Positions 12,888 through 21,879 of a stretch of 42,154 bases of DNA are shown here, in pieces. The translations under genes and the position numbers were made by a program. The stretch is from Nitrospira sp. UW-LDO-01 (GTDB lineage Bacteria; Nitrospirota; Nitrospiria; Nitrospirales; Nitrospiraceae). How positions within the stretch are numbered: position 1 is the stretch's first letter; every line of letters begins with the position of its first letter. The notes beneath the pieces are model-generated. The model did not search any database. It was not told the DNA's origin and was given only the letters and a program-made list of their open reading frames with translations. Location: contig NIUT01000055.1 in assembly GCA_002254365.1 (NCBI GenBank), positions 19,118 through 61,271 of the forward strand, given 5' to 3'.

Positions 12888-13871
12888 ATGGCACCTCAGG
12901 ATCACGCAGAGGCAAAAAAGAATGAACGGAATCTTGGACCGCTAAAGCTACTGCCTGGCGTATGGAAAAGCGAGGGCCGTGGATGGAACATGATCGCACT
13001 GCCGTTTGCAACGGCGCCGAGTCCCCTGGATTATCGGCTGCTGCTCAATCAATATAACGAACAGCTTGAGTTTAAGTTGGTGGATGACAATGTGCCGAAC
13101 CGCGGCGTCGAGCAGAATAACCCTACCGTCCAAACCGATCAATTTGTTGTCACGGTAGATTATCAGCAGACGATTCAGCAAGTCGCGGCTACCGATTTCC
13201 CTGAGAGCGGCGGGTTGGCAGGTGCTGCTGGCCTCGCAATTCACCATGAGCCGGGCTTGTGGCTGCATCTGAAGAACCAGATCACCGATGGCCTGAATAT
13301 CGCGCGTCTCGCGACGATTCCCCATGGCGATTCGGTGTTGGCCTTAGGGCAGAGCAGTGAACACATGGGTGCATCATGCATTCCTCATCTCAATAGCTTG
13401 CCGGAAGGGGTCACCCAAGACCTCGATGGCAACCGCTACTTGAGCCCCTATAAGAAATTCCATGACAGCCCGTTCAAAGGAACGGTAACCGCCCCAGGAT
13501 TCCCTGGATTCGACCCAACGGCGACGCATGTCCTGCTTGAACTTGCCAACAAAGGTGTCGCTGTTGATAGGACAACGACACTGACTGTTGACACGACGAA
13601 TCCAACGGGTGGCATTACGAACATTCCGTTTGTCGTGAGAAAGGCCAATGCGACCGTCATGAAGTCGATATTTTGGATTCAGGAATTAGCAGAGAAGGAT
13701 ACGTATGGAGATCCGAAGCTCCGTCTGCAATATTTGCAGGTGGTTATGTTGGATTTCTTTCCGCGGAGGGACGGGTTCCCAGACTGCTGCCCTGGTCTTA
13801 TTAGATGGCCACACGTCAGCATCAATACGTTAGAGAAAGATCCAGATGCGAGTAAGCCGTACTACTCGTAA
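12888..13871 (+). CDS. Hypothetical protein, possible calycin/nitrobindin-like beta-barrel
   Basis: A 327-residue protein without signal peptide or membrane segment. LGPLKLLPGVWKSEGRGWN resembles the opening of calycin/FABP-like domains (G-x-W after a short helix). The segment AIHHEPGLWLHL recalls the His-containing strand of nitrobindin-type barrels. The rest is beta-rich (FVVTVDYQQTIQQVAAT, GTVTAPGFPGFDPTATHVLL, LTVDTTNPTGG) and includes a Cys pair near the end (FPDCCPGLIRWPH). A heme- or lipid-binding role would be a guess. The start has AAGGGAGA eight bases upstream. It is convergent with the phosphoesterase gene at 13985-16228. Confidence 0.6.
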   Translation: MAPQDHAEAKKNERNLGPLKLLPGVWKSEGRGWNMIALPFATAPSPLDYRLLLNQYNEQLEFKLVDDNVPNRGVEQNNPTVQTDQFVVTVDYQQTIQQVAATDFPESGGLAGAAGLAIHHEPGLWLHLKNQITDGLNIARLATIPHGDSVLALGQSSEHMGASCIPHLNSLPEGVTQDLDGNRYLSPYKKFHDSPFKGTVTAPGFPGFDPTATHVLLELANKGVAVDRTTTLTVDTTNPTGGITNIPFVVRKANATVMKSIFWIQELAEKDTYGDPKLRLQYLQVVMLDFFPRRDGFPDCCPGLIRWPHVSINTLEKDPDASKPYYS

Positions 13872-13984: not shown

Positions 13985-16228
13985 CTACTCACGCGCCTTC
14001 CGTTTTGTCCGCAATCGTTCGAGTTTGGCTTCTGCCTGTTCGACGGACAGGGGTGACGGCAACTCGCGCGTTCCCTTTGCCTTGCCTCGGCCTAAACTTG
14101 GTCGCCTGGACCCTTTGCTCGTTCTCGATACCTGTTCGGGCAATTGATTCACGTACATCAGCAGGGCCTCTCGCGAGCCCTCAATGGGCGGTTCCGCAAG
14201 GGCTCTCCTGCTTCTTGCCATTGGGGGTGACTTAGCCGTCAATGTTTCCGGCGTGTCGGTTCTTGGCACGTCGAGTGTCAGGAGTTCTTCGGCAAAGGTA
14301 TTCGCTTGTTTGTTTCCGGCACTGGCCTGTATCCGTTGGCCCAAGGGCTCCAGGTCCCATTTGTCGCAAAGATAGCGCAACAGGCTGGTGTGGTCGAAGA
14401 CGGTCTTGATGACACCTTTCTTGATCCACGGTGAGACGAGAATGGTCGGCACACGCACACCTAGTCGGTCGAAGGTCCAGTGTGCGGTGTGATCATCCGG
14501 TGCTACCGTGTTAGGTGGTGCGACATGGTCATAGAAGCCCCCGTGTTCGTCGTACGTCACGATCAACAACGTCGACTCCCACAAAGCCTTGTTCTTACGA
14601 ATGGCGTTGTAGACATCAGCAATCAGCTGTTCGCCTTGCCTCACGTCGGCCGGTGGATGTTGGTCATTCTCGGTCGATCCGAAGTAACGGGGTTCGATGA
14701 ACGCGTATTGTGGAAATTCCGCCGCATCCCCTGCAGCCGCATCAAAGAAGCCGTCCATCCCGTCATAGCCTCGGAAGGTCAGATATCGAGTGAGGAGTCG
14801 AGTGAGCACGATGCTCTGCGGAATGCCATCGTGGAAGATGGCCCAGTCAATGTTTGAATCAGAAAGGCGGTCAAAGATGGTCTCTTGGTAGTAGAGACGC
14901 ATGGCCAAAGGATTCGTTTGTGATGGCATTTCCGTATGGCCGAGACAGGTTCCGCTATGCGCAAAAAACCGGTTTTGCCAAGTCGGTCCAGGCATCGAGG
15001 CGAACCAGTGATCGCAGACGGCAAAATTGCGGGCCAAGCCGTGTAAGACGGGAAGGCTGTCAGCGTTCGGTTCGTCGCCGAATGGGAAGTAGGCCATCAC
15101 CTGATCGAGTTCCGCATCGGACGCATCTTGATAGCGATCGACATACGAGGTAACGAACCCCGACATCGGTTTGGCCGGGGACCCGATTTGTTTCAGTGTG
15201 CCATCGAGCTCATGGTTGAGGTCACGCCGGACAACCCAGTCTGCGATGGGTTGTTGCTGAACGAGGGTCCCGTTTGGCGCGGTATTACTTGCGGGTTGGT
15301 TCAGCTGGATGCCCTCGACCGTGGGATCGATTTTGGTCATGCCCCCGAGCATGTGGTCAAACGATCGGTTCTCCAACATCAGGACGACGACATGTTTGAT
15401 CGGGTCGCGCTCATCCGTCGCACGGGCAGGAATCGTCTTCACCTTGCGTCGGCGCAGGAGTTCGCGATGAGCACGTTCGCGACTGGACGTTGCTTGTGTG
15501 TATTTGCGTAGATAGCCGCGGCCATACTTCGCGGCGCGTTTAATCGCGAGGCGTGTTCTCGCTTTGGCGTCCTTCGGAGGGGCCCACTGCTCGTGCGTGC
15601 GGGTCCTTGGGTTGAAGAAGCCGATGTACCCACCAGGCGCCACGCCGAACGATGCGAGTCCGTTTCTTTTTGTGAGCATCCCTAAAAAGTCGTTTCGACC
15701 GCCTTCTTGCTCTTCTTTCGTAAAATAGAGCGGGAGCACGAAATTCGACACCTCAACACCGTCGATTTGGTAGGTTTGAGATTGAACGGCATCGCACATT
15801 TCAAACCAATGAAAGACCTCGAGGGTCGGCTTTTCAGGATGTGGCCCTTGGATGAGTAGATTGACCTGTGCATCGGCCAGCAACTCGAGCGCTTCATGCG
15901 ACAGGGTCACGCTCCATTGTTCGTCAAGGTTCTTCGAAAGTTCTGTGAAGACAAAGCCATAGGGAATGCCGCGCGCGTTCGTGTCGTGATAGCCGAGAGC
16001 TTCCTCAACGTTCGGCTTATCCCAAAGGTAAATAATCGCATCGCCACGAAGGTCTAAGAGCGATTCTTTGTTTGGGCGTTTGCCGACCTTACCCTCTAGC
16101 CGCAGGGTGGCGCCGAAGCTCCAGTAGGGTTCGAAATCTTCACGGATTTGACGGTTGATCGCCCGAATGACCCGTTGCAGCGCAGGATCCGGAATCGTAA
16201 GGGAACGGTTGATGATCGAGATAATCAT
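13985..16228 (-). CDS. Phospholipase C/AcpA-type phosphoesterase with an N-terminal HEALE domain
   Basis: 747 residues in two parts. Residues ~275-660 form a bacterial phosphoesterase (non-specific phospholipase C / acid phosphatase AcpA) domain: HVVVLMLENRSFDH (280-292), CDHWFASMPGPTWQNRFF (405-422) and VTYDEHGGFYDHVAPP (557-572) carry the metal and nucleophile residues. Residues 1-220 are a separate domain with SVTLSHEALELLADAQVN (HEALE 111-115), FEMCDAVQ, and GVEVSNFVLPLYFT, which looks like a zinc-peptidase-derived module. The C-terminus is a basic tail. No signal peptide or Tat motif is seen, unusual for a family that is mostly exported. GGAG seven bases before ATG supports the start. 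Substrate is unknown. Confidence 0.82.
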   Translation of the reverse strand: MIISIINRSLTIPDPALQRVIRAINRQIREDFEPYWSFGATLRLEGKVGKRPNKESLLDLRGDAIIYLWDKPNVEEALGYHDTNARGIPYGFVFTELSKNLDEQWSVTLSHEALELLADAQVNLLIQGPHPEKPTLEVFHWFEMCDAVQSQTYQIDGVEVSNFVLPLYFTKEEQEGGRNDFLGMLTKRNGLASFGVAPGGYIGFFNPRTRTHEQWAPPKDAKARTRLAIKRAAKYGRGYLRKYTQATSSRERAHRELLRRRKVKTIPARATDERDPIKHVVVLMLENRSFDHMLGGMTKIDPTVEGIQLNQPASNTAPNGTLVQQQPIADWVVRRDLNHELDGTLKQIGSPAKPMSGFVTSYVDRYQDASDAELDQVMAYFPFGDEPNADSLPVLHGLARNFAVCDHWFASMPGPTWQNRFFAHSGTCLGHTEMPSQTNPLAMRLYYQETIFDRLSDSNIDWAIFHDGIPQSIVLTRLLTRYLTFRGYDGMDGFFDAAAGDAAEFPQYAFIEPRYFGSTENDQHPPADVRQGEQLIADVYNAIRKNKALWESTLLIVTYDEHGGFYDHVAPPNTVAPDDHTAHWTFDRLGVRVPTILVSPWIKKGVIKTVFDHTSLLRYLCDKWDLEPLGQRIQASAGNKQANTFAEELLTLDVPRTDTPETLTAKSPPMARSRRALAEPPIEGSREALLMYVNQLPEQVSRTSKGSRRPSLGRGKAKGTRELPSPLSVEQAEAKLERLRTKRKARE

Positions 16229-16409
16229 GGCAGATCTCCAATCGCGTCGTGGATCATGGTCTCAGTACTGCTCTGCAGGTCGTGGTGTGTTTGATCAGCA
16301 GTGGGCAGCTCTGTGACTCAGGTCACCATACTCAAATATGATACGAAAGCCAAGCGGAAAGGGGAGGATACTGATAGTGGTTATTCTGATATTGACGACA
16401 CGATTGTTG

Positions 16410-19566: not shown

Positions 19567-21879
19567 GTGGTCGATCAAACCTCGAATCCATATGATGTCT
19601 TTCTGAGTTACCACTGGCGCGACCATGCCCAGGTGGAAGCACTCGCGCATCGGTTGCATGAGCAGAAGCTCACCGTCTTTCTCGACCGGTGGTATCTCAC
19701 TCCAGGGCAATCATGGCCCAAGGCATTGGAAACAACTCTGGCGAGCTGTCGGGCGGTAGCCGTCTGTCTTGGCCAGGGCGAGATGGGGCCGTGGCAGCAG
19801 CGGGAGCAGTACCTCGCGCTGGAGCGGCAGGTAGCCGCTGAACGCCGTGGCCAGACCTTTCCTGTCATTCCCGTCTTACTACCAGGTGCTGAACCGCCGC
19901 TCGGGTTTCTGAGTCAACAGTCCTGGGTCGATTTCCGTCCACGCGTCGACGATCCAGTTCTCCTGAACACGCTGGTCAACGCCATTCATGGGAAGCCGCC
20001 AGGTCCGGATGCGTTGGAGGCAGTCCGCAACACACTCGCCACGTTATGTCCCTACCGAGGCCTGCTCTATTTCCGTGAGGAAGACGCGCCGTTCTTCTCT
20101 GGGCGCGAAGCCGCCATCACCCAGCTCGCGAGTGCGATTCAGCAGCACCATCTCGTCGCAGTGGTCGGGGCGTCGGGCAGTGGGAAATCGTCGGTCGTCA
20201 GAGCTGGCCTGGTGCCGGAACTGCGGAAGGCTCGTGATCGAGTCTGGGAGGTGGCCACGATCGTGCCGACGGATCGCCCCGTCCATGCGCTGGCGGCGGT
20301 GCTCATGCCATTCCTTGAGCCGGACATGACAGAAACCGATCTGTTGATCGAGACGAACAAGCTGGCCGAGGCGCTAGTCAGTCGGTCCGTTGCCCTTCGC
20401 GATATCGTCGACCGGGTGCTTGCCAAGCAGCCGGGTACCGATCACCTGCTCCTGATCGCTGACCAGTGGGAGGAACTGTTCACGCTTTGTAAGGACGACG
20501 TGGCTAGGCGCTGCTTCATCGACAATATCTTAGAAGCCACTTCAGCCACAAAATTGAGTGCGGTGCTCACCCTGCGGGGAGACTTCTTTGGCCGAGCCAT
20601 TACCGACTATCGGCCGTTGTCGGATCGAGTCCAAGGCGCCCAAGTCAATCTCGGGCCGATGAAGCGGGAGGAATTGCGTCTCGCCATCGAGGAGCCGGCG
20701 AAGAAGGTCGGACTCACGTTTGAAGCGGGCCTGGTTGAACTGATTCTTGAACAGGTCGGCGATGAACCGGGCCATCTCCCCTTGGTGGAATTTGTGCTCA
20801 GGCGCTTGTGGGAGGATCGCCAGGGCGGCCAGCTCCATCATGCGGCCTACAAGGCGATGGGGGAGTTACAGGGGGCTATTGCGCAAAAGGCAGATGCGTT
20901 GTTCTCACAGCTGAGTGATGCAGACCAACGAAGGGTTCAACAGATCTTTCTTCGCCTGGTACGACCGGGTGAAGGTGAGGCAGACACCAGGCGCCGTGCG
21001 ACCCTCGCGGAAGTCGGCGCGGAGGAACATCGTCTGGCGAAGAAACTTGCCGATGAGCGTCTCCTGGTGACCTCGCAGGTTACCCGTGGTGGAGAAGAGA
21101 CCATCGAGGTGTCGCATGAGGCGCTCATTCGGCATTGGGATCGACTCAAGAGCTGGGTGGATGCTGATCGCCGCTTTCTCTTGTGGCAGCAGCGCCTCCG
21201 TATCGTGGTCGACCAGTACGAAGAGAATCACAAAAGTGCCGACCTGCTCCTCAGAGGATTTCCCCTCACCGAGGCGGTGGAATGGCAGAAGAACAAGCCG
21301 GATTCGTTCGCCCAGCGTGAGCGTCAGTTCGTCATGGCCAGTCAGACGCAGATGCTGCGCCACCGGTGGCGCACTGTCGCAATGGGTCTGCTTGCCCTGC
21401 TGGTGGTCGGAGGACCGCTCCTCTGGGTGGAACGACAGGGTGTGACGCTCAAGTATGCGAGCAGCATTGTCCTGGCTCGGTTGCATGTGGTGTCGGTGGC
21501 GGAGCCGGCAATGGTTCCAATCTCGGGTGGCAGCTATCAGCAAGGAGATATCCATGGTCTTGGGGACAAGAGCGAACTACCAGTCCGACAGGTGACGATC
21601 AAGCCGTTCGCCATTGGCAAGTATGAAGTGACATTTGAGGAGTATGATCACTATGTGGAGTTGACTGGTGGTCGATCACCAAGCGATCAATCATGGGGGC
21701 GCGAGAACCGTCCCGTGATCAACGTCTCGTGGGACGACGCTATGGCGTACGCGACGTGGCTCTCACAAGCGACGGGCAATCACTATCGGTTGCCGACAGA
21801 ATCCGAATGGGAATACGCGGCGCGGAGTGTGGGGGAAACGATGAGACCTGGGCTGGGACATCGGACGAGCAGCAGCTGA
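19567..21879 (+). CDS. TIR-nSTAND1 NTPase-transmembrane-FGE protein, truncated by frameshift
   Basis: 770 residues as read. A TIR domain (7-140) opens with NPYDVFLSYHWRD, and E55 in KALETTL is the likely NADase Glu. Next is a novel-STAND (nSTAND1) NTPase introduced by CPYRGLLYFREEDAPFFSGR (161-180), with Walker A GASGSGKSS (201-209) and Walker B LLLIADQWEEL (294-304). A transmembrane helix lies at about 602-621 (VAMGLLALLVVGGPLLW), and an FGE/SUMF-type domain begins near 645. The FGE domain breaks after YRLPTESEWEYAARSVG, where a -1 shift at the G5 tract 21831-21835 would restore the frame to 22202 and give about 878 residues. TIR-STAND proteins are sensors in antiphage defence or conflict systems. 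The GTG start is forced by an in-frame stop just upstream; no ribosome site is visible. Confidence 0.85.
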   Translation: MVDQTSNPYDVFLSYHWRDHAQVEALAHRLHEQKLTVFLDRWYLTPGQSWPKALETTLASCRAVAVCLGQGEMGPWQQREQYLALERQVAAERRGQTFPVIPVLLPGAEPPLGFLSQQSWVDFRPRVDDPVLLNTLVNAIHGKPPGPDALEAVRNTLATLCPYRGLLYFREEDAPFFSGREAAITQLASAIQQHHLVAVVGASGSGKSSVVRAGLVPELRKARDRVWEVATIVPTDRPVHALAAVLMPFLEPDMTETDLLIETNKLAEALVSRSVALRDIVDRVLAKQPGTDHLLLIADQWEELFTLCKDDVARRCFIDNILEATSATKLSAVLTLRGDFFGRAITDYRPLSDRVQGAQVNLGPMKREELRLAIEEPAKKVGLTFEAGLVELILEQVGDEPGHLPLVEFVLRRLWEDRQGGQLHHAAYKAMGELQGAIAQKADALFSQLSDADQRRVQQIFLRLVRPGEGEADTRRRATLAEVGAEEHRLAKKLADERLLVTSQVTRGGEETIEVSHEALIRHWDRLKSWVDADRRFLLWQQRLRIVVDQYEENHKSADLLLRGFPLTEAVEWQKNKPDSFAQRERQFVMASQTQMLRHRWRTVAMGLLALLVVGGPLLWVERQGVTLKYASSIVLARLHVVSVAEPAMVPISGGSYQQGDIHGLGDKSELPVRQVTIKPFAIGKYEVTFEEYDHYVELTGGRSPSDQSWGRENRPVINVSWDDAMAYATWLSQATGNHYRLPTESEWEYAARSVGETMRPGLGHRTSSS

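What the first reader, a model, noticed from the sequence alone, without database searches (positions are those of the whole stretch)
13985..16228. HEALE domain fused to a phospholipase C-like phosphoesterase
The first ~220 residues carry SHEALELL plus CDAVQ and NFVLPLYF blocks and look like a separate peptidase-derived module. The rest is an AcpA/PLC-type enzyme. The whole lacks a signal peptide although relatives are exported. The fusion could be a secreted effector or an intracellular enzyme with a targeting module.
Basis: partly seen in the sequence, partly recalled or inferred. Interest (0 to 1): 0.5.

Follow-up and report, generated by a model that had tools for sequence, protein, structure and literature searches.

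The report
Metzincin-like module fused to phospholipase C
A Nitrospira gene joins a lipid-cutting enzyme to a little-known protease-shaped module that usually occurs on its own in bacteria and also in viral DNA, sometimes near wall-cutting enzymes, which hints at a shared job in taking cells apart.

Summary
Window 13985-16228 (-) is one 747-aa ORF. Residues 1-220 are a separate domain; residues 273-640 are a PF04185 phospholipase C-like enzyme, by sequence nearest to plant NPC4 among solved structures, with all seven NPC4 catalytic residues kept. The fusion is real: four Nitrospira genomes, one per species, carry it, and both halves are under purifying selection.

The N-domain is not a standard extension. 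It has no Pfam, NCBIfam or PHROG model, is mostly a stand-alone gene of about 230-310 aa, and occurs in several bacterial phyla and in 66 IMG/VR contigs. Two AlphaFold models resemble metzincin zinc proteases (Z 6.6-7.8, borderline), but the motif is HExxE...D, not HExxHxxGxxH. In one Rhizobium plasmid it is fused to a phospholipase D-like protein.

In 8 of 13 Nitrospirota loci read, the stand-alone gene follows an intact astacin-type protease; a few viral copies lie near lysin-like genes. I read it as a metal-dependent hydrolase of envelope breakdown tied to a phospholipase; metal, catalysis and substrate are inferred. A signal peptide is absent, but also in its own-genome paralogue. Injection-system cargo is poorly supported: the window's genome showed neither marker searched, though two of the four fused genomes have an eCIS marker.

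The parts
13985..16228 (-). fusion gene, 747 aa
   Evidence: same architecture in four genomes of the genus
16236..16239 (-). GGAG, candidate ribosome-binding site
   Evidence: sequence
15569..16228 (-). N-module, residues 1-220, metzincin-like fold
   Evidence: AlphaFold of residues 1-235, pLDDT 88.9, pTM 0.88; VIA-align Z up to 7.8; 209 confirmed relatives in genome contigs, 80 kept
15872..15901 (-). SHEALELLAD, residues 110-119: HExxE motif in the candidate active-site helix, plus D119
   Evidence: H111, E112, E115, D119 in 61 of 61 aligned members; partly by construction for pattern-found loci; also invariant among 7 members found without the pattern
15986..15988 (-). H81, candidate metal ligand or active-site residue
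   Evidence: 61 of 61; 158 of 162 copies with a letter there
15791..15802 (-). E143-M-C-D146, candidate third ligand D146
   Evidence: D146 in 162 of 162 copies with a letter there
15413..15568 (-). basic linker, residues 221-272
   Evidence: 67 and 71% identity to the 84% and 81% homologues, against 90% in the N-module
14309..15412 (-). PF04185 phospholipase C-like domain, residues 273-640
   Evidence: NPC4 match E 8.5e-55
15368..15373 (-). E286 N287 = NPC4 E23 N24
15212..15214 (-). H339 = NPC4 H79
14981..14983 (-). T416 = NPC4 T158, nucleophile
14657..14659 (-). H524 = NPC4 H264
14546..14551 (-). D560 E561 = NPC4 D299 E300
13988..14308 (-). variable basic tail, residues 641-747
   Evidence: 55 and 54% identity to the 84% and 81% homologues

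Best explanation
The gene encodes a two-domain, leaderless hydrolase. The C-terminal half is a non-specific phospholipase C of the NPC/AcpA kind: T416 is the nucleophile, helped by E286, N287, D560, E561, H339 and H524, and it should cut phospholipids. The N-terminal half belongs to a family of metzincin-like domains without a model in the libraries searched, in which H111, E115 and an acidic residue (D146 or D119) would hold a metal and E112 would be the general base, cutting a protein or peptide bond. The module normally works alone, in Nitrospirota beside protein- and wall-cutting enzymes; here it is tied to a phospholipase, so that wall- or protein-attacking and membrane-attacking activities arrive together. 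Shown: the fusion, its selection, the intact PLC residues, the separate family and its neighbours. Supported by prediction: the fold. Inferred: metal, catalysis, substrate, lytic role and how it leaves the cell.
For: Fusion in four genomes, with dN/dS 0.065 and 0.076 (N-module) and 0.107 and 0.105 (PLC) against the 84% and 81% homologues. All seven NPC4 catalytic residues kept. Fold: two models led by different members; for the second, all 50 listed entries are MMP, ADAM/ADAMTS, snake-venom or archaemetzincin zinc proteases, for the first 47 of 50 by my reading of the titles; HExxE lies in the helix after the fifth strand. H81, H111, E112, E115 and D146 invariant or nearly so. Neighbours: intact astacin-type gene upstream in 8 of 13 Nitrospirota stand-alone loci read and broken in 2 more, Amidase_2 homologue downstream in 5, GH46 confirmed in 1; lysin-like genes in 6 of 57 non-duplicate viral loci, of which two are backed by Pfam or PHROG. 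Fused to a PLD-like protein in Rhizobium. Precedents: CLCA1, a zinc protease domain described with an HEXXE motif (PMC6851300, passages); a phage-origin metzincin that with its partner raises Listeria's sensitivity to phage lysis (PMC8235301, abstract and section list).
Against: No activity or metal data. Foldseek has no match at E <= 0.001, and its two best for the second model are a toxin subunit and a hexosaminidase. No sequence-level relation to archaemetzincin (probability 0.3). HExxE and the missing invariant Met depart from metzincins and could mean a non-peptidase or a dead enzyme. No Pfam family is found in more than 3 of 123 bacterial neighbours. Lysins are near only a minority of viral copies.
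Confidence: 0.4

Rival explanations
1. The N-module is a targeting or binding adaptor (a metzincin-like scaffold, not a working protease) that brings the phospholipase C to its substrate; its conserved acidic and histidine residues bind a structural metal or a ligand.
For: In related genomes the same PF04185 enzyme carries other N-terminal stretches: FG-GAP repeats, below-cut-off matches to crystallin and PUD1_2, and unnamed stretches, so an N-terminal accessory slot is the local habit. The motif is HExxE, not HExxH.
Against: Near-invariance of H, E, E and D is what a catalytic site shows; most copies are stand-alone with no fused enzyme to target.
Confidence: 0.3
2. The module is a protease that acts on its own fusion, cutting the basic linker (residues 221-272) and releasing or activating the phospholipase.
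For: The linker is basic and less conserved than both domains; CLCA proteins, with an HEXXE motif, cut themselves (PMC6851300, passages).
Against: No cleavage site is known; stand-alone copies would have no such substrate.
Confidence: 0.1
3. Cargo of a contractile (eCIS) or type VI injection system.
For: No signal peptide; Pvc16_N, an eCIS marker, is in two of the four fused genomes, G036 and G180; one stand-alone locus (L146) lies beside an eCIS-core (PF13699) protein.
Against: No Pvc16_N in the window's genome or G186; no VipB in the four fused genomes. Over the phylum Pvc16_N is in 3 of 17 module-bearing and 38 of 278 other genomes, so no clear association. In none of the four is the fusion gene on the contig of the marker.
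Confidence: 0.07
4. An intracellular enzyme of lipid turnover, like plant NPC4; the module regulates it.
For: No leader; the nearest solved relative is NPC4, and the own-genome paralogue is leaderless as well.
Against: The module's neighbours in Nitrospirota are wall- and protein-cutting enzymes.
Confidence: 0.13

Closest known systems
Non-specific phospholipase C4 (NPC4, PF04185; PDB 8hav)
   Same: Phosphoesterase domain, E 8.5e-55 over 275-669; seven catalytic residues kept
   Different: No N-terminal metzincin-like module in the matched chain; the NPC4 C-terminal domain was not shown to match the window's tail
Metzincins (archaemetzincin 3lmc and 4axq, MMP11 1hv5, snake-venom and ADAM proteases)
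   Same: Predicted fold
   Different: HExxE...D in place of HExxHxxGxxH/D, no invariant Met, no detectable sequence relation to archaemetzincin
CLCA1 catalytic domain (HEXXE motif, PMC6851300)
   Same: Described as a zinc-dependent protease domain with HEXXE, in a protein of ADAM-like layout (passages)
   Different: Animal secreted protein; no sequence comparison was made here
Phage-origin metzincin of Listeria (PMC8235301)
   Same: Metzincin of phage origin that raises sensitivity to phage lysis (abstract)
   Different: Works with a TIMP-like partner; sequence not compared

Membership tests
PF04185 phosphoesterase, NPC type | Pfam match above the curated cut-off | tested here: met
   249.9 bits against 23
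PF04185 phosphoesterase, NPC type | NPC4 catalytic residues E23 N24 H79 T158 H264 D299 E300 | tested here: met
   E286 N287 H339 T416 H524 D560 E561
PF04185 phosphoesterase, NPC type | NPC4 C-terminal domain needed for full activity | tested here: inconclusive
   The match ends at NPC4 residue 415; most of the tail 641-747 not matched
Phosphocholine-specific PLC, TIGR03396 | Score above the curated cut-off | tested here: not met
   145.8 against 580.25 bits
Acid phosphatase, TIGR03397 | Score above the curated cut-off | tested here: not met
   100.5 against 362.75 bits
Metzincins (N-module) | Metzincin fold | tested here: inconclusive
   Consistent hits from two models but Z 6.6-7.8, below 8, with three unrelated entries at Z 7.0-7.2 for the first
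Metzincins (N-module) | HExxHxxGxxH/D zinc signature (recalled) | tested here: not met
   HExxExxxD in 61 of 61
Metzincins (N-module) | Invariant Met in the Met-turn | tested here: not met
   No Met among the invariant or nearly invariant columns; tested on sequence only
Metzincins (N-module) | Zinc-dependent peptidase activity | not testable with these tools
   Needs the protein
Aspzincin/deuterolysin M35 | Active-site histidine-glutamate motif plus GTxDxxYG | tested here: inconclusive
   An Asp ligand is possible, but M35 is not among the 12 Pfam families that any of 61 members matched at E <= 1
CLCA | HEXXE catalytic domain homology | not tested
   No CLCA sequence was compared; CLCA is not among the Pfam matches of the 61 members
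eCIS or T6SS effector | Injection-system marker in the window's genome | tested here: not met
   No Pvc16_N and no VipB in G000; but Pvc16_N is in fused genomes G036 and G180

The most novel reading that the evidence does not exclude
The module is a new variant of the metzincin plan, with an H-E-D metal site (HExxE...D), spread between bacteria and phages as a lysis enzyme, and Nitrospira has tied it to a phospholipase C to make a single leaderless lysin that attacks both wall or envelope protein and membrane lipid, released by cell lysis or used against neighbours.
Probability: 0.2. Interest if true: 0.72.

Novelty: new variant of a known kind. Interest (0 to 1): 0.52.

Why it matters
It points to a widespread bacterial and phage domain family that the three model libraries searched do not cover, with a likely but unusual metal site. 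If active, it would extend what a metzincin-type site can be made of and add a possibly lysis-linked enzyme to soil and nitrifier biology. The fusions to a PLC-type enzyme and a PLD-like protein give a direct handle for finding what it does.

Tried and rejected
Standard extension of PF04185: rejected, since 14 matches in 98 related genomes include two with the module. Apparent 604-aa N-terminal extension in L017: it lies opposite two minus-strand ORFs and the module has its own ATG with AGGAG, so I treat it as an artefact. L233 was read as an ORF with glycosyltransferase domains before the module; not counted as a fusion because an internal start is possible. Injection-system cargo: no clear association over the phylum, but two of four fused genomes have Pvc16_N. 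Defence system: no PADLOC match at E <= 0.01 for the fusion or for L047. The single-sequence virus scan, PHROGs and the INPHARED search found nothing; the profile scan then found 66 loci, so the virus-scan blank was a matter of sensitivity. The Foldseek search of viral structures gave no match at E <= 0.001; its best rows include poxvirus and phage metalloproteases among unrelated ones. Profile comparison with the neighbouring astacins gave a 21-column tail match that I consider spurious. With archaemetzincin, hhalign gave nothing usable, protein comparison failed in 115 (astacin) and 116, and A4 against A6 gave probability 0.3. Paper searches were aimed at HExxE and metzincin; I make no claim that the family is absent from print.

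Caveats on counts: genome-contig loci were found by the pattern SHEx[LI]E[MLT][LFC][AVI]D and viral loci by SHExLE[ML]LA or an ExCD pattern, so conservation of those letters is partly built in; H81, Q27, F163 and Y201 are in none of the patterns, and D146 is in one viral pattern only. Of 209 confirmed genome relatives 80 were kept. The 162 copies include the window and near-duplicates. Of the eight plasmid hits, L008 (broken frame) and L010 (close to L009) were left out of alignment A1. Neighbour genes come from my own ORF pickers, not from annotation; 'leaderless' for the astacins is by eye. The neighbour scans used 123 of the 151 immediate neighbours listed (303 neighbours) and 110 of the 148 listed, chosen by hand. 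Nine near-duplicate viral loci were dropped to give 57. Stand-alone loci in G068, G047, G073, G259, G304 and G157 were not read for neighbours. The two structure models share most of their alignment rows, so they are not independent. I assume that searches drew the same 295 genomes. On checking I lowered the main reading from 0.42 to 0.40 and raised the injection reading from 0.05 to 0.07, because of the unrelated fold matches and the two marker-bearing fused genomes.

Full report
Pfam and NCBIfam recognise only the C-terminal enzyme. The own genome (3.9 Mb, 230 contigs, 99.4% complete) has one copy, plus a PF04185 paralogue, L002, at 33% identity that starts directly at the domain.

The fusion is genuine. 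Three other genomes of the genus have the same 747-aa architecture: L133 (97.6% identical), L134 (matching named Nitrospira contig L011, 84.2%) and L132 (matching L012, 81.3%). Between the window and the latter two, dN/dS is 0.065 and 0.076 in the N-module and 0.107 and 0.105 in the PLC domain; it is 0.317 and 0.190 in the linker, and 0.208 in the tail for the one pair where it could be computed. Against the 97.6% copy the ratios are 0.016 (N-module), 0.236 (PLC), 0.541 (linker) and 0.456 (tail), from few changes. A 37-row tree makes the four fused modules one clade (100/99), sister to a stand-alone copy in the gammaproteobacterium Solimonas (99/99) and apart from the ten stand-alone copies of the same family in it. 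One fusion event after separate acquisition of the module is the simplest reading; the tree has long branches elsewhere.

The C-terminal half aligns to Arabidopsis NPC4 at E 8.5e-55. The residues whose alanine mutants lose much or all activity in NPC4 (E23, N24, H79, T158, H264, D299, E300; PMC9837106, passages) are all present, as E286, N287, H339, T416, H524, D560 and E561. Phospholipid hydrolysis is therefore the expected activity; it is not shown. The protein falls below the curated cut-offs of the PC-PLC and acid phosphatase models.

The N-terminal half is a separate family. tblastn found it in eight plasmids, mostly in genes of its own, and in Rhizobium sp. Pop5 at the start of an 819-aa protein with a PLDc_2 domain and two HxKxxxxD motifs, of which Pfam covers the second. 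A scan of 84,980 species genomes confirmed 209 relatives, of which 80 were kept. Nearly all those read are single genes of about 230-310 aa, many with a purine-rich site before the start; records are labelled Acidobacteria, Proteobacteria, Chloroflexi, Actinobacteria and others, a few archaeal bins included. In Nitrospirota 17 of 295 genomes have it at E <= 1e-10. None of 61 members has a convincing Pfam, NCBIfam or PHROG match (best E-values 0.0064, 0.021 and 0.035). A profile scan of IMG/VR found 66 contigs with it, although the single-sequence scan and the INPHARED search had found none. Among 110 neighbours in those contigs PHROGs names terminase large subunit (3), several endolysin families (1 to 2 each), a tail sheath and a virion structural protein, so at least some contigs are phage.

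Fold. AlphaFold with 61 sequences gave pLDDT 88.9 and pTM 0.88 for the window's module; a second run led by an Acidobacteria copy, with 66 largely shared sequences, gave 90.5 and 0.86. The order is strand, long helix, four strands, short helix, then the helix holding HExxE. Foldseek had no hit at E <= 0.001; zinc proteases are frequent in its lists but the two best rows for the second model are a toxin subunit and a hexosaminidase. VIA-align, a second look at those lists, ranked metzincin-type zinc proteases high: all 50 entries for the second model (Z 6.6-7.7, rmsd 2.9-4.0, 116-138 residues); for the first, Z 6.7-7.8 with three unrelated entries, two NMDA receptors and a dehydroquinase, at 7.0-7.2. 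Z below 8 is not proof. Sequence profiles do not link it to archaemetzincin. Across 162 copies with letters at these positions, H111, E112, E115 and D146 have no exception, H81 has four and D119 five. The pattern search builds in part of this, but the seven members aligned before any pattern was used also share H81, H111, E112, E115, D119, E143 and D146. One viral-contig copy, L221, carries an intein (PF14890, E 2.7e-25), by eye between module residues 75 and 76, close to H81.

Context. In Nitrospirota, 13 stand-alone loci were read. Eight have an intact astacin-type gene just upstream, two a broken one, three none. Five have a homologue of an Amidase_2 plus SH3 protein downstream, and one a GH46 enzyme with a peptidoglycan-binding domain. 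The window's genome keeps the astacin (82% identical) elsewhere, without module or amidase in the 8.4 kb read. Over the wider set no Pfam family occurs in more than 3 of 123 neighbours at E <= 1e-6. In viral loci, the lysin queries found a lysin-like gene within 3.4 kb in 6 of 57 (L179, L180, L188, L191, L206, L226). PHROGs backs L180 and Pfam backs L206; L226 has only a peptidoglycan-binding domain and L188 no Pfam match. In L206 an amidase with a peptidoglycan-binding domain, a papain-type protease and the module are consecutive.

In related genomes the PF04185 enzyme is a mixed-and-matched unit: other copies carry FG-GAP repeats, below-cut-off crystallin or PUD1_2 matches, or unnamed stretches in front. 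The window's fusion is one more such pairing, with a module that looks like an enzyme.

Mechanism. I commit to a metal-dependent hydrolase on a metzincin-like plan, working in envelope breakdown, tied to a phospholipase C. The main rival is a binding adaptor. Injection-system cargo is poorly supported: Pvc16_N is in 3 of 17 module-bearing and 38 of 278 other genomes; it is absent from the window's genome and G186 but present, on other contigs, in fused genomes G036 and G180. No VipB was found in the four fused genomes. How the protein reaches its target is open.

Noticed in passing
L003:5986-8445 (Rhizobium sp. Pop5 plasmid): The same module fused to a phospholipase D-like protein with two HxKxxxxD motifs, near DUF2252, subtilisin-type and GDSL hydrolase genes.
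   Followed up: partly
L221:4513-6561: A viral-contig copy of the module interrupted by an intein with a weak HNH match, about five residues before the position of H81.
   Followed up: partly
window 12888-13871 (+): Heme-binding protein of the FMP type (NF040572), present at this place in the window and L133 (G186) but not between the fusion and DUF3422 in L011 or L012; local GC is lower.
   Followed up: partly
window 19567-21879 (+): TIR-nSTAND1-FGE-sulfatase protein, possibly a defence or conflict protein; weak PADLOC matches to SEFIR/TIR models.
   Followed up: no
L105, L106, L109, L112-L115: PF04185 enzymes of related genomes with varied N-terminal stretches: FG-GAP repeats, below-cut-off crystallin or PUD1_2 matches, unnamed; L115 also has a ricin-type lectin match after the enzyme.
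   Followed up: partly
L029:7560-8747, L049:7545-8732, L070:7449-8753 (Caulobacterales): Module preceded by a hydrophobic, possibly membrane-spanning stretch (by eye). A RoxA-like cytochrome c match (PF21419) is in 2 of 123 neighbours, L027's upstream gene being one.
   Followed up: partly
L235:5884-6534 (242-kb viral contig): A divergent module copy with an apparent signal peptide (by eye), a few kb from a gene that reads like a tail sheath.
   Followed up: no
L146:3035-6058: An eCIS-core protein (PF13699) with a below-cut-off M35 metallopeptidase match, and a second gene alike by eye, next to a module with a broken astacin.
   Followed up: partly
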